Below, in pieces: positions 3,196-34,099 of a DNA stretch of 54,698 nt (positions within the stretch are counted from its first letter, which is position 1; each line of letters opens with the position of its first letter). The notes beneath the pieces are model-generated. The model saw nothing but the letters and a program-made list of their open reading frames with translations. It did not search any database and was not told the origin of the DNA. The DNA comes from Candidatus Poribacteria bacterium (GTDB taxonomy: Bacteria; Poribacteria; WGA-4E; WGA-3G): positions 1 through 54,698 of the forward strand of contig JAJECK010000021.1 in assembly GCA_022822085.1 (NCBI GenBank), in the 5' to 3' direction. The translations under genes and the position numbers were made by a program.

Positions 3196-4131
3196 CTACC
3201 CGTCAATTGATACATCCTCAGACTCCCACAACCACGGACTATGATCAGGTTGAAATTCCAGCCATTTCAGTGCAAAATCTGCGAATTCAGGATTTATTTC
3301 TATGCCGAGATAGTCCACACCTAACGTTTTTGCTACAACACATTCTGATCCAGAACCAGCGAATGGGATAAGCACTTTTCCATCTTTTCCATTGATTCGG
3401 GATAAGATGAGGCGTCTTGTCAATTCCATCGGTTTTTGAGTTGGATGTTTCAATATATCGTGTTCTCTGTGTTCGGAAAGGTCTGCTGGTGGATAAATAT
3501 TAGATTCACATGTTCTACAAAGGAACCACCTTTCTGCGCGTCCTGCGCCGCCAGCCAATGCTGGAATTTTTATAACATCTCTCGGTAAAGCCCCATTTTT
3601 ATGAGCATTATAGATCGTCATTTTTCCTACTGTTCCGTAGCGAGAAGGGGTGTCTTTCCGAACTTTTCCTGCAGCATTCTTTAGAAAATTCTCAGTATAA
3701 GGTTCTCTAATTTGATCTATTTCTAAATTTGTCCGAGGCATATTCGGTTTCCACAGACACAATATCGCCTCATGTGACCGCTGCCAAAATTTCAATGATG
3801 GCACAGTTTTGTTGGTATAATGCCACACCAACCAGCGTTGTTCGTGGATGGGAAAACGTACAGAAATTCTTGCGATTATTTCTGGGAATCCATACAGATA
3901 AAGCAAACCGTCATCAGTCAAGAGTTGAAGACAATCTTTTATCCACATCTCTGCCCATTCAACATAATCGTCTATGGGCATCATATCTGTCCCGTTCCCA
4001 AAATCTTTACCGATGTTATATGGCGGGTCGGCAATAATCACTTGATACTGTTCATCAGCCTTGATCAACTGTGGCAATATCTGGGTTGAGTCTGCGACCA
4101 TGATAGTGTTCGTCAAAGTGTCTGCCTTCAT
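3196..4131 (-). CDS. DNA (adenine-N6 or cytosine-N4) methyltransferase, beta class
   Basis: A 311-residue SAM-dependent DNA methyltransferase. Catalytic motif IV, DPPYNIG, is near the N terminus and the SAM-binding motif I, FAGSGSE, near the C terminus, so the motif order is that of the beta class (N6_N4_Mtase family). HPTQKP lies just before motif I, as usual. DPPY is commonest in adenine-N6 enzymes, but N4-cytosine is not excluded. The gene is followed at once by the putative restriction nuclease and would protect host DNA from it. The ATG at 4131 (MKADTL) is preferred over an in-frame TTG at 4143. The middle carries CxxC-type cysteines (FLCRTCESN), possibly a small metal site. Confidence 0.92.
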   Translation of the reverse strand: MKADTLTNTIMVADSTQILPQLIKADEQYQVIIADPPYNIGKDFGNGTDMMPIDDYVEWAEMWIKDCLQLLTDDGLLYLYGFPEIIARISVRFPIHEQRWLVWHYTNKTVPSLKFWQRSHEAILCLWKPNMPRTNLEIDQIREPYTENFLKNAAGKVRKDTPSRYGTVGKMTIYNAHKNGALPRDVIKIPALAGGAGRAERWFLCRTCESNIYPPADLSEHREHDILKHPTQKPMELTRRLILSRINGKDGKVLIPFAGSGSECVVAKTLGVDYLGIEINPEFADFALKWLEFQPDHSPWLWESEDVSIDG

Positions 4132-8595: not shown

Positions 8596-9081
8596 ATGAA
8601 CATTGAACTTAAGCAAATTTCAATAGATGAAAAACCTGTTCTTAGTAATCTGATGCAGTTTTGCTTTCACGATTATAGTGAATATAATAACGAGGATGTT
8701 GGACCTTATGGACTGTTCAACTACAAATATCTTGACTACTATTGGACAGAACTTGAACGTTTTGCTTACTTTGTGAAGATTGACGGAAAATTGGCTGGAT
8801 TTGCGTTAGGTAGGCAGAGCCGACCAGAAAACGGTGAGCGTATAAACATACTCTTCGAATTCTTCATTATGAGAAAATACCGACGAAAAGGGATAGGAAT
8901 GAAGGTTGCTCATCGACTCTTCGCGAAATATCCGGGCAAATGGTCGGTTGTACAGGAAGCTGGCAATTTCCCTGCACAAGCCTTTTGGAGAAAAGTTATT
9001 GACGAATACACAAAAGGCAATTTCACAGAGACCCAAGGGAAGAAGGGACCTGTCCAAGAGTTTGAAAGCCCTAAAAAATAA
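8596..9081 (+). CDS. GNAT family N-acetyltransferase
   Basis: A 161-residue protein with a GNAT core: beta strands with YFVKIDGKLAGFALG, then FFIMRKYRRKGIGMKVAHRLF, where RRKGIG is the acetyl-CoA pyrophosphate-binding loop (Q/R-x-x-G-x-G/A). The tail has the NFPAQAFWRKVI segment typical of the last GNAT helix. The acceptor substrate is unknown. An AAGGAAA ribosome site lies about 5-10 bases before the ATG. It stands alone between two intergenic regions. Confidence 0.82.
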   Translation: MNIELKQISIDEKPVLSNLMQFCFHDYSEYNNEDVGPYGLFNYKYLDYYWTELERFAYFVKIDGKLAGFALGRQSRPENGERINILFEFFIMRKYRRKGIGMKVAHRLFAKYPGKWSVVQEAGNFPAQAFWRKVIDEYTKGNFTETQGKKGPVQEFESPKK

Positions 9082-9181
9082 TTACGGCACGCGAGGATTC
9101 ATTGTCAAGGACTTACGCATTTCCCCTTGAATGGAGTTTAAGTTTTTAATTCGGTAATTCTAATTGTTCCCAATCCCAGTA

Positions 9182-9403
9182 GGTGCGGTTTCCTAACCAC
9201 ACCATAGCCGTCAATTTAAGGAATATTATGTGTATTTTGGATGTGTTCAACCCAGGAATTAACGTCAAATGCGCGTTGACACCTCTTATATTCTGTCCGA
9301 GCGAGCTTTGCTCGCGACAAAGGACGAACGGTCGCGAGCAAAGCTCGCTCCTACAAGAAAATCTCCGCTAAATTGACGCCTATGGTGCGGTTTCCTAACC
9401 ACA
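9182..9403. repeat. Nested inverted-repeat element with GGTGCGGTT hairpins
   Basis: The motif GGTGCGGTTTCCTAACCACA occurs at 9182-9201 and 9384-9403. With its following bases the first copy folds as GGTGCGGTT-TCCT-AACCACACC with one mismatch. Between the copies, CCATAGCCGTCAATTTA (9202-9218) faces TAAATTGACGCCTATGG (9369-9385) as a near-perfect inverted repeat, and inside that lies the 9299-9350 cruciform. A related hairpin, GCGAGGTT-TCCT-AACCTCGC, recurs at 34168-34187. Confidence 0.65.
9299..9350. repeat. Perfect 20-bp inverted repeat (cruciform)
   Basis: The left arm 9299-9318 and right arm 9331-9350 are exact reverse complements over 20 bases, with a 12-base loop. Each arm also contains its own small palindrome (GCGAGC-TTT-GCTCGC). 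No T-tract follows, so it is more likely a palindromic repeat than a terminator. A relative with the same GCTCCTAC tail is at 19953-19978. Confidence 0.75.
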
Positions 9404-9642
9404 TCGGATCCTAAGCGAAAACTTTATCTTTAAGATATTCTAAGCAATGCAGCACGACACTAAACACTAACAACCCCTGGAATAAATCAGATGCGGTCGG
9501 GAAACCGCACCTACCGTTTCGGTGCATCGATAAATTGACAGTTATGGGTTTTCAGAGCTATTTCCACAGACATTAGCAGGTTCTTTTTTATCAAAAAAAT
9601 AATGTCTATGTATTTTTGTAATCCACTATAAGGAGCGATGTT

Positions 9643-10410
9643 ATGAAACTTATGCCTGAAGAGGTCCAACAATTCAAACGCGAAGGCTATCTCAAAATAG
9701 ATGAACGAGTCATTGATGACGAACACCTTGCCGTGCTACGCGAACATTATGACGCACTGTTTGCACAGAAACGCGGCACAATTGGTGAGGGGCTGCGTAA
9801 CCTTGCAGTTGTCGGGGACTCGGAAAGCGATGAAGACGCTGATCGTGCCGAAGAGATGTTACAGATCATGGAGATGTGGCGTTTCGATGAGGAATATCGG
9901 AAGCTACTCTACCACAAACCTTTATTAGACATCGCTGAGAGTTTAATCGGACCCAATATCCAGTTATTTCATGATCAAGCACTCTACAAACCTGCCTATC
10001 ACGGCGGAGAAGTGTATTGGCATCAGGACAATGCATATTGGCGGTGTGATCCACCCAATCTTGTGAGCATCTGGATAGCACTCGATGATGCCGACGAGGA
10101 GAACGGTTGTATGAACGTTATCCCCGGCAGTTATTCTGAAGGATTGGCGGCACATGGACGTGCTGAGTCAGAAAAAGGTAATGTGCCCGCGTTGTTGCAA
10201 GTAGATGCTGATGTCCATCGTGCTGTGCCAGTGCCTGTTGAAGCAGGATCTGCTATGGTCCATCACTGCATGACACTTCATCAGACTAATCCGAACCGCT
10301 CATCCAGGGACCGCCGGGCGATGGTCATTCATTACATGCCATCTGGTACGCGGAATGGCAATGGCGAAGTGATGAAAGATAACCTTCTGTTGCGCGGCGA
10401 GTTGGCATAA
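9643..10410 (+). CDS. Phytanoyl-CoA dioxygenase (PhyH) family oxygenase
   Basis: A 255-residue Fe(II)/2-oxoglutarate-dependent oxygenase. The first two iron ligands are in YWHQDNAYW (H-x-D, about residues 126-128) and the distal His is in HHCMTLHQTNPN, followed by SRDRRAMVIHYMP, whose Arg binds 2-oxoglutarate. The fold and length fit the PhyH family, which hydroxylates fatty acyl-CoA, small metabolites or natural products. The substrate cannot be told from sequence, and neighbours do not help. AAGGAG at 9630-9635 fixes the ATG. Confidence 0.87.
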   Translation: MKLMPEEVQQFKREGYLKIDERVIDDEHLAVLREHYDALFAQKRGTIGEGLRNLAVVGDSESDEDADRAEEMLQIMEMWRFDEEYRKLLYHKPLLDIAESLIGPNIQLFHDQALYKPAYHGGEVYWHQDNAYWRCDPPNLVSIWIALDDADEENGCMNVIPGSYSEGLAAHGRAESEKGNVPALLQVDADVHRAVPVPVEAGSAMVHHCMTLHQTNPNRSSRDRRAMVIHYMPSGTRNGNGEVMKDNLLLRGELA

Positions 10411-32663: not shown

Positions 32664-33725
32664 ATGCAAACACACCTTTATCTCTCCATTGCAGGAGAAA
32701 ACAGAATTGCTATTTTTACTTTTGATGTAAACAATGGCTCAATTGAATTACAAGATAATGTGGAAGTCAGTGGTTCACCTGGTCCATTGACACGCTCACC
32801 ATGTGGTAACTACCTATATGCCGGACTCCGTTCCAGTCGAGAAATCGCAACTTATCAAATAGATGAAAAAAGTAAGCAGCTTACGTTATTAAGTCCTATT
32901 CAACTGGACGCGGATACATGCTACATCGCTACAGACAAAACTGGAAGATATCTACTTTCGGCATATTATGGTGCAGGAAAAGTTACAGTTCATGCAATAG
33001 GTGAAGACAAAACCGTTCAAGAAGGAGCAATCCAAACAATTGAAACAGCACCACATGCACACTACATTGAAACCGACGCGACAAATCGGTTTGCTTTCGT
33101 CCCACACACCGTTCCGCGCAATGCTATCTATCAGTTTCACTTTGATCCAGATACTGGTAAACTAACACAGAACTTCTTTGGAAATTACAATCCTGATGAA
33201 CCCGTTGGACCTCGGCATTATAGCGAACATCCTAACAAACCGATCTTTTACTTCTCAAATGAACAAGGATCAAGTGTGACTGCTTGCAACCTTCAAGTAG
33301 GGGATCCAGATGTCACCATTCCAGAGTCTGGCACTCCTGATTACACAGTAAATGATGCACCTGGATTGCTATGGGAATTTCAAACTCTATCCACACTTCC
33401 AGATGATTTTTCAGAACATAATTCCTGTGCACAAATTCATATTGACCCACATGCAAAGTATCTTTATGTATCAAATCGTGGTCATGACAGCATCGCAATT
33501 TTTTCTATTGATGACGAGAATGGGGAATTGACTGCTGTTGGACATCAACCTACAGAACCGACACCTCGTGTCTTCAACATTGATGAAACAGGTAATTATC
33601 TATTTGTAGGTGGACAGGGCTCTGGTAAATTGGCTACCTACAGAATTAATCGGGATAGTGGGATGCTTTCTGAAATTGATACAATTGAGGTGGGTGAAAA
33701 CCCAATGTGGGTTCTATTTCTTTAG
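32664..33725 (+). CDS. Lactonase-type seven-bladed beta-propeller (6-phosphogluconolactonase family)
   Basis: A 353-residue propeller of the Pgl/YbhE family. Repeats of the type L-Y-x-x-x-x-x-x-x-I-A-x-F-x-(I/F)-D are visible, for example HLYLSIAGENRIAIFTFD, YLYVSNRGHDSIAIFSID and YLFVGGQGSGKLATYRIN. The GPRHYSEHPNKP segment includes the conserved His. Such proteins hydrolyse 6-phosphogluconolactone or a related lactone in the cytoplasm; no signal peptide is present. A hairpin shared with the opposite selenoprotein gene follows its stop. Confidence 0.85.
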   Translation: MQTHLYLSIAGENRIAIFTFDVNNGSIELQDNVEVSGSPGPLTRSPCGNYLYAGLRSSREIATYQIDEKSKQLTLLSPIQLDADTCYIATDKTGRYLLSAYYGAGKVTVHAIGEDKTVQEGAIQTIETAPHAHYIETDATNRFAFVPHTVPRNAIYQFHFDPDTGKLTQNFFGNYNPDEPVGPRHYSEHPNKPIFYFSNEQGSSVTACNLQVGDPDVTIPESGTPDYTVNDAPGLLWEFQTLSTLPDDFSEHNSCAQIHIDPHAKYLYVSNRGHDSIAIFSIDDENGELTAVGHQPTEPTPRVFNIDETGNYLFVGGQGSGKLATYRINRDSGMLSEIDTIEVGENPMWVLFL

Positions 33726-33790: not shown

Positions 33791-34021
33791 TTATAATTTG
33801 TCAATTGCAGTGGTTATTTGGTCTTCTGTAGGGAATTTCCGTTGCTCAAGTTTAGAGAAGAGCAGTTCCTCATTTACATATACTTCAAAAGCTCCACCAC
33901 TACTTTCTACAAGTTTCACTTTCTTGACCTGACCACTATATTTCTTTTCTAAGGCTTCTGCCAAACTGGCTGCCCGTGGTTGATAGTTTCAAGATGTGCA
34001 ATACTCTATTCTAATATCCAT
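33791..34021 (-). CDS. SelW-like (Rdx family) selenoprotein with in-frame UGA
   Basis: Read through one TGA this is a 76-residue protein: MDIRIEYCTS-U-NYQPRAASLAEALEKK, then VKLVESSGGAFEVYVNEELL, FSKLEQRKFP and TAIDKL before TAA. Position 11 (33989-33991) is TGA and falls exactly at the last residue of the C-x-x-U redox motif of the SelT/SelW/SelH (Rdx) family; the GGAFEV block and the C-terminal F-P-x-x-x-x-x-x-x-A pattern are also family features. These are thioredoxin-fold oxidoreductases. AGGAGG (34033-34038) precedes the ATG at a spacing of 11. A hairpin at +19 to +29 after the TGA fits a bacterial SECIS. An ordinary ORF search misses the gene. The alternative, a simple stop mutation, would be a striking coincidence at this codon. 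Confidence 0.85.
33960..33970 (-). promoter_or_regulatory. Candidate bacterial SECIS hairpin
   Basis: In the mRNA, GCCA-GUU-UGGC forms a 4-base stem with a 3-base loop; the loop's first base is G and lies 23 bases after the UGA codon. A lower GGC/GCC pair could extend it with an internal loop. Bacterial SECIS elements are hairpins just 3' of the UGA with a G near the start of the loop, at about this distance. Folding is by eye. Confidence 0.5.
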
Positions 34022-34099
34022 TTAGTATTTTTCCTCCTAATGTACTGGGAATTCTACATAATTGTACCAGATTATATTGAAATTTGCAAGTATTTTGAT

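What the first reader, a model, noticed from the sequence alone, without database searches (positions are those of the whole stretch)
33791..34021. Hidden SelW-like selenoprotein gene with in-frame UGA
The minus strand encodes a complete 76-residue Rdx-family protein if TGA at 33989-33991 is read as selenocysteine. The TGA falls exactly at the U of the C-x-x-U redox motif (YCTSU), a good AGGAGG site and stop codon frame the gene, and GGAFEV matches the family. Standard ORF calling drops it or truncates it, so selenoprotein use by this lineage could be overlooked. Seen: sequence, frame and ribosome site. Known: Rdx proteins often carry Sec here. Inferred: Sec insertion.
Basis: partly seen in the sequence, partly recalled or inferred. 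Interest (0 to 1): 0.88.

Follow-up and report, generated by a model that had tools for sequence, protein, structure and literature searches.

The report
SelW-like selenoprotein of sponge-symbiont Poribacteria
The window carries a real, conserved gene for a small redox protein in which an internal stop codon almost certainly encodes the selenium amino acid selenocysteine; the protein family is already known, but its bacterial phylum (Poribacteria, sponge symbionts) turns out to be a little-noticed heavy user of such proteins, including what looks like an undescribed many-copy family.

Summary
Confirmed. Window 33791-34021(-) encodes a 76-aa Rdx/SelW-like protein (PF10262 1e-24; NF041051 above cut-off) with TGA at the U of C-T-S-U. 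The host is a Candidatus Poribacteria species. All 78 homologues found in 85 Poribacteria genomes carry exactly one in-frame TGA; no Cys form was seen. The own genome holds selA, selB, selD and tRNA-Sec(UCA). The RNA after the UGA forms a bacterial SECIS hairpin with compensatory changes: one third-codon-position pair is C-G, G-C or A-U in 84 of 84 sequences. Codons after the TGA are under purifying selection. TGA is an ordinary stop elsewhere in the genome. A lineage lacking selA, selB and selD also lacks the gene. The SelW-like selenoprotein is a known kind, so this is a new member, in a phylum where no selenoprotein had been reported in the library I could search. Following the machinery showed more. 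The same genome has at least 14 selenoprotein genes, eight from a family with no Pfam, NCBIfam or PDB match (motif DE[SA]CU[GA][ST]GK, Cys next to Sec, thioredoxin_7-like). That family has about 436 copies in 65 of 85 Poribacteria genomes, up to 17 per genome, with its own covarying hairpin. It is the more novel result.

The parts
33791..34021 (-). SelW-like (Rdx family) selenoprotein gene, 76 aa, ATG to TAA
   Evidence: Pfam PF10262, NCBIfam NF041051/TIGR02174; AlphaFold model pLDDT 92, best PDB matches bacterial SelW-related proteins
33989..33991 (-). TGA codon read as selenocysteine (U11 of C8-T-S-U11)
   Evidence: one in-frame TGA in 78 of 78 Poribacteria homologues, and at this place in every homologous locus from other phyla examined
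33952..33975 (-). bacterial SECIS hairpin; core stem 33970-33967 / 33963-33960, apical loop GUU 33966-33964, 22 nt after the UGA
   Evidence: folds and covariation over 84 distinct sequences; meets the published bSECIS constraints (PMC13188914)
33998..34000 (-). TGC codon for the resolving Cys8 of the C-x-x-U redox motif
   Evidence: invariant in alignment A2 of 35 sequences
34033..34038 (-). Shine-Dalgarno AGGAGG, 11 nt upstream of the ATG
   Evidence: sequence; conserved in relatives
32664..33725 (+). convergent neighbour, lactonase (7-bladed beta-propeller, PF10282); not part of the gene, conserved neighbour in the genus
   Evidence: found beside the SelW-like gene in 15 related loci

Best explanation
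This is a functional gene for a SelW-like (Rdx family) selenoprotein. SelB with Sec-tRNA(UCA), guided by the hairpin that starts about 20 nt after the UGA, inserts selenocysteine at codon 11 instead of terminating. The protein is a small thioredoxin-fold oxidoreductase without a signal peptide, so probably cytosolic, in which Cys8 and Sec11 (C-x-x-U) cycle between a reduced thiol/selenol and a selenenylsulfide, reducing an unknown thiol or peroxide substrate. Shown by sequence evidence: gene, family, conserved UGA, SECIS, machinery, purifying selection. Inferred: actual Sec insertion, the redox cycle, location and substrate (the redox role I hold at about 0.8, cytosolic location about 0.8).
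For: Family and fold. UGA conserved in 78/78 Poribacteria homologues and in the Bacillota, Binatota, Planctomycetota, Acidobacteriota and other loci retrieved. Sec machinery in the own genome: selA C104, selB C94, tRNA-Sec with anticodon tca directly beside selB, selD C140, itself with TGA. SECIS: core stem paired 84/84, 84/84, 84/84, 83/84; pair +23/+29 (Ala third base with Leu/Phe third base) is CG 75, GC 8, AU 1, with 0 of 20000 shuffles as good; Ser codon AGU in 78/84 although AGT is 25% of Ser codons in this genome, and Ala GCC in 65/84 although GCC is 12%. dN well below dS after the TGA (dN 0.014-0.18, dS 0.38-2.2). Co-loss: the two f6 genomes (one 95% complete) lack Rdx, and lack selA, selB and selD above cut-off.
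Against: No expression, proteomic or biochemical data exist for this organism in my tools. The pattern search that brought the loci favours close relatives, so its non-Poribacteria loci are not a random sample; Cys-type Rdx proteins do exist elsewhere (solved bacterial structures). G046 (95% complete) keeps the machinery but lacks the gene, so the gene is dispensable or lies in an assembly gap there.
Confidence: 0.96

Rival explanations
1. Pseudogene: a Cys codon decayed to a stop, leaving a dead Rdx gene.
For: A TGC/TGT to TGA change is a single step; ordinary ORF callers would end the gene at 10 aa (one search lists no such ORF).
Against: The same TGA is kept in 78 species-level genomes and across phyla, the downstream part is under strong purifying selection, and the SD site is conserved.
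Confidence: 0.01
2. UGA is read as Trp or another ordinary residue, by genome-wide reassignment or by read-through.
For: Reassigned UGA is known in other bacteria (own knowledge).
Against: TGA ends 151 of 718 long coding frames here with no coding signal behind it (mean -23 bits) and a median of 9 codons to the next stop. The codon sits exactly at the redox-active position and the machinery for Sec is complete.
Confidence: 0.02
3. The conserved hairpin only reflects conserved amino acids (Ala-Ser-Leu-Ala), not an RNA signal.
For: The region encodes the conserved motif PRAASLA.
Against: Third codon positions pair through compensatory changes (C-G, G-C, A-U) in 84 of 84 sequences, and Ser is nearly always AGU and Ala mostly GCC against genome preference.
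Confidence: 0.03

Closest known systems
Bacterial SELENOW-like (SelW-like) selenoproteins, PF10262 / TIGR02174 / NF041051
   Same: Length, CxxU motif, Rdx fold, GGAFEV-type motif, Sec form predominant; listed as a predicted high-confidence family with CxxU in PMC13188914 and in PMC9312934; with SelD the most widespread selenoprotein of marine communities in PMC2398784; Sec thought to be the original form in PMC1794560.
   Different: Only the host is new: no paper in the searchable library names both Poribacteria and selenoproteins. PMC5649159 notes only that SelA and SelB COGs co-occur in most sponge-symbiont bins of various phyla.
Mammalian SelW (2npb) and MIEN1/C17orf37 (2ljk)
   Same: Same fold in Foldseek (TM 0.69 and 0.77), 36% identity to MIEN1 in the structural alignment; sequence match to MIEN1 E 3e-9.
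   Different: Eukaryotic; Sec insertion there uses a 3' UTR SECIS (own knowledge).
Cys-type bacterial Rdx proteins (2fa8, 2obk, 2p0g, 3dex)
   Same: TM 0.88-0.92, about 27-33% identity.
   Different: Cys where this protein has Sec (read in the alignment for 3dex; assumed for the others).

Membership tests
SelW-like / Rdx family (PF10262) | Profile score above curated cut-off over the full domain | tested here: met
   86.9 bits vs 22.6; NF041051 89.6 vs 88, TIGR02174 79.8 vs 34.2
SelW-like / Rdx family (PF10262) | CxxC/CxxU motif after the first strand | tested here: met
   C8 and U11 invariant
SelW-like / Rdx family (PF10262) | Thioredoxin-like Rdx fold | tested here: met
   AlphaFold pLDDT 92.3, TM 0.92 to 2fa8 (modelled with Cys for Sec)
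SelW-like / Rdx family (PF10262) | Thiol/selenol redox activity | not testable with these tools
   needs purified protein
Bacterial selenoprotein | In-frame UGA conserved at a redox position | tested here: met
[quoted passage not shown]
   loop GUU, 22 nt, -8.0 kcal/mol (model from PMC13188914)
Bacterial selenoprotein | selA, selB, selC, selD in the genome | tested here: met
Bacterial selenoprotein | Selenium physically present in the protein | not testable with these tools
   needs 75Se labelling or mass spectrometry

The most novel reading that the evidence does not exclude
Poribacteria of the host's order carry an undescribed, lineage-expanded selenoprotein family (motif DE[SA]CU[GA][ST]GKxLRA). 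It consists of thioredoxin_7-like domains in which the usual W-C/U-x-x-C centre became C-U-x-x-G, so that the resolving Cys moved next to Sec (a vicinal Cys-Sec pair, as in the GCUG tail of mammalian thioredoxin reductase). There are about 436 copies in 65 genomes, up to 17 per genome, often in tandem, with a conserved SECIS-like hairpin after the UGA. Sponge symbionts would thus be unexpectedly rich in selenoproteins.
Probability: 0.78. Interest if true: 0.72.

Novelty: new member of a known kind. Interest (0 to 1): 0.5.

Why it matters
It shows that nearly a whole uncultured phylum known from sponge symbionts decodes UGA as selenocysteine, so standard ORF calling truncates or loses its redox genes. 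A 2026 review (PMC13188914) says aerobic bacteria rarely keep selenoproteins, so selenium-rich redox biology in sponge symbionts would be worth explaining. The tandem Cys-Sec family offers a natural set of hundreds of sequences, with a paralogue that lost Sec to Gly rather than Cys, for studying how Sec enzymes arise and decay.

Tried and rejected
An MlrC-like ORF near selD (L119 6656-8143) looked like another selenoprotein; its TGA lies only a few codons before the end and is most likely its normal stop, so it was rejected. Rfam found nothing in the window at gathering thresholds. Paper PMC12013261 (Haft and Tolstoy 2025, selenoprotein neighbourhoods) is not held, so the new family could be checked only against NCBIfam and the 2026 catalogue, not against that text. 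SelW and the new family are not related at profile level.

Full report
Observation. Read through the TGA, it is a complete 76-residue Rdx/SelW-like protein: Pfam PF10262 86.9 bits, NCBIfam NF041051 'SelT/SelW/SelH family (seleno)protein' 89.6 bits against a cut-off of 88. The search of the own genome finds this one Rdx gene and reports it with one internal TGA. The AlphaFold model (Cys in place of Sec, 35 homologues) has pLDDT 92.3 and its best PDB matches are bacterial SelW-related proteins, TM 0.92 to 2fa8, then MIEN1 and mouse SelW.

Host. The relatives with 76-96% identity are all MAGs titled Candidatus Poribacteria. The own genome is 5.63 Mb, 96.5% complete.

The TGA is conserved. In the 85 genomes held for the phylum, 78 have an Rdx match over the cut-off; all 78 carry one in-frame TGA and none a Cys form. 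In the loci read codon by codon, Cys and TGA stand at the two motif positions in every Rdx gene, Bacillota, Binatota, Planctomycetota, Acidobacteriota and others included. The C8 and U11 columns are invariant.

The region after the TGA is coding and selected. The hexamer model gives +52.5 bits in frame against -28 in the best other frame. In the same genome, 151 of 718 long frames end in TGA and are followed by non-coding sequence (mean -23 bits over 30 codons), so TGA is a working stop codon and is not reassigned. Pairwise dN/dS over 63 codons after the TGA is about 0.04-0.19 within the genus.

SECIS. 22 nt after the UGA lies the loop of the hairpin GCCA-GUU-UGGC, meeting the published bSECIS model (3-9 nt loop, G in its first two positions, 16-37 nt from the UGA, MFE at or below -7.5; PMC13188914). 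Over 84 distinct sequences the four core pairs hold in 84, 84, 84 and 83. The pair between the third base of an Ala codon and the third base of a Leu/Phe codon is C-G 75 times, G-C 8 and A-U once; none of 20000 shuffles pairs as well. The Ser codon in the loop is AGU in 78 of 84, although AGT is a quarter of Ser codons in this genome. The shuffles do not correct for relatedness, but the compensatory G-C type recurs in separate phyla (Bacillota, Acidobacteriota and others).

Machinery. selA (611.7 bits), selB (354.7) and selD (372.9), all above curated cut-offs, and a tRNA-Sec with anticodon tca lying beside selB are in the own genome. selA is found in 72 of 85 genomes. Two genomes of one family (f6; one 95% complete) lack selA, selB and selD above cut-off, and lack the Rdx gene: a joint loss. 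Genome G046 keeps the machinery but not the gene. The tRNA-Sec model also gives near-threshold matches to what are probably other long-arm tRNAs, controls included, so matches at 47-50 bits (as in f6) are not taken as evidence.

Reading. Gene, conserved UGA, SECIS, machinery and selection are shown; Sec insertion and redox function are inferred. The gene stands alone, convergent with a lactonase gene that neighbours it across the genus, so no operon partner points to a substrate.

Known or new. SelW-like selenoproteins are an established bacterial family (PMC1794560, PMC2398784, PMC9312934, PMC13188914). No paper in the library mentions both Poribacteria and selenoprotein; one notes that SelA and SelB COGs are common in sponge symbiont bins (PMC5649159). 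So the gene itself is a new member of a known kind.

What following it revealed. Reading the selB and selD loci and sampling about 1.39 Mb of the genome gave further selenoprotein genes: SelD (motif CAGU, Sec17 of the ORF) and a UGSC-family protein (NF041046, 157 bits, cut-off 125) about 2.8 kb from it; an AhpC-TSA protein with FFRGGWUPWC; a thioredoxin_7 protein with DWUGYC; a protein with repeat domains ending in a heavy-metal-type domain with GMTUGAC (identified by eye, not by a family search); and eight members of a family with no Pfam or NCBIfam match and no significant PDB match. That makes at least 14 with SelW.

The new family (alignment A1) has the motif DE[SA]CU[GA][ST]GKxLRA. It is found in 65 of 85 Poribacteria genomes; summing the per-genome counts gives about 436 matches, up to 17 in one genome. 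Of the best-scoring matches listed there, all but four carry an in-frame TGA. Six lie in tandem in 10.5 kb of the own genome (L173 3976-14500). The 70 distinct members read have an AGGU/AGUU-type (56) or GGUC (14) hairpin loop about 23 nt after the UGA; in the larger class 327 of 336 pair cells hold against a maximum of 319 in 2000 shuffles. The smaller class is too uniform to test. Profile comparison with Poribacteria thioredoxin_7 domains, several themselves WUGxC, gives probability 93.5%, E 2.3e-7. In that alignment Sec takes the place of the first active-site Cys, the usual Trp becomes Cys, and the second Cys becomes Gly. My inference is a redox centre made of adjacent Cys and Sec. One paralogue read has Gly instead of Sec (L181 frame 7542). 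The family was seen only in the host's order (families f1, f2, f4). None of the 119 families in the 2026 catalogue (PMC13188914) matches both its motif and its domain, but I could not search outside the phylum or read every source paper.

Scores. The SelW gene alone is solid but of a known kind. Together with the evidence that the phylum is rich in selenoproteins and carries an apparently undescribed multi-copy family, overall interest is about 0.5; the new family on its own would deserve about 0.7.

Noticed in passing
L173 3976-14500 (G000:C123), L174 about 8964-9989 (G000:C112), L140 2613-3779 (G000:C21): Eight paralogues of an unnamed selenoprotein family, motif DE[SA]CU[GA][ST]GK, six of them in tandem; about 436 copies in 65 Poribacteria genomes, no Pfam/NCBIfam/PDB match, own covarying SECIS-like hairpin.
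   Followed up: yes
L119 8557-9090 and 4717-5763 (G000:C140): A UGSC-family selenoprotein gene lies about 2.8 kb from the Sec-containing selD.
   Followed up: partly
L118 7053-8678 (G000:C94): Putative lipoprotein with CopC/Ig-like domains and an AhpC-TSA domain carrying FFRGGWUPWC, about 1 kb from selB.
   Followed up: partly
L217 about 3591-3851 (G000:C99); L193-L196, L202, L211, L215: Thioredoxin_7 proteins with Sec in a UGxC centre, widespread in Poribacteria.
   Followed up: partly
L199 and L209 1501-1752 (G002:C21, G007:C272): Thioredoxin_7-like proteins with two in-frame TGAs, FRUVPUVSC: possible double-Sec centre.
   Followed up: no
L236 17033-18712 (G000:C58): Protein with repeat domains and a C-terminal heavy-metal-associated-like domain reading GMTUGAC, with a SECIS-like hairpin.
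   Followed up: no
L181 frame 7542 (G025:C2:7747-8880); also matches in G070, G066, G032 without TGA: Paralogue of the new family with Gly (CGGSGK, read in L181) where the others have Sec: Sec lost to Gly, not Cys.
   Followed up: partly
L173 9122-9124: A second TGA in one tandem paralogue, at a place where a relative has Arg and no SECIS was found: nonsense mutation or assembly error.
   Followed up: no
genomes G051 and G055 (family f6): Poribacteria lineage that appears to have lost selA, selB, selD and the Rdx gene together.
   Followed up: partly
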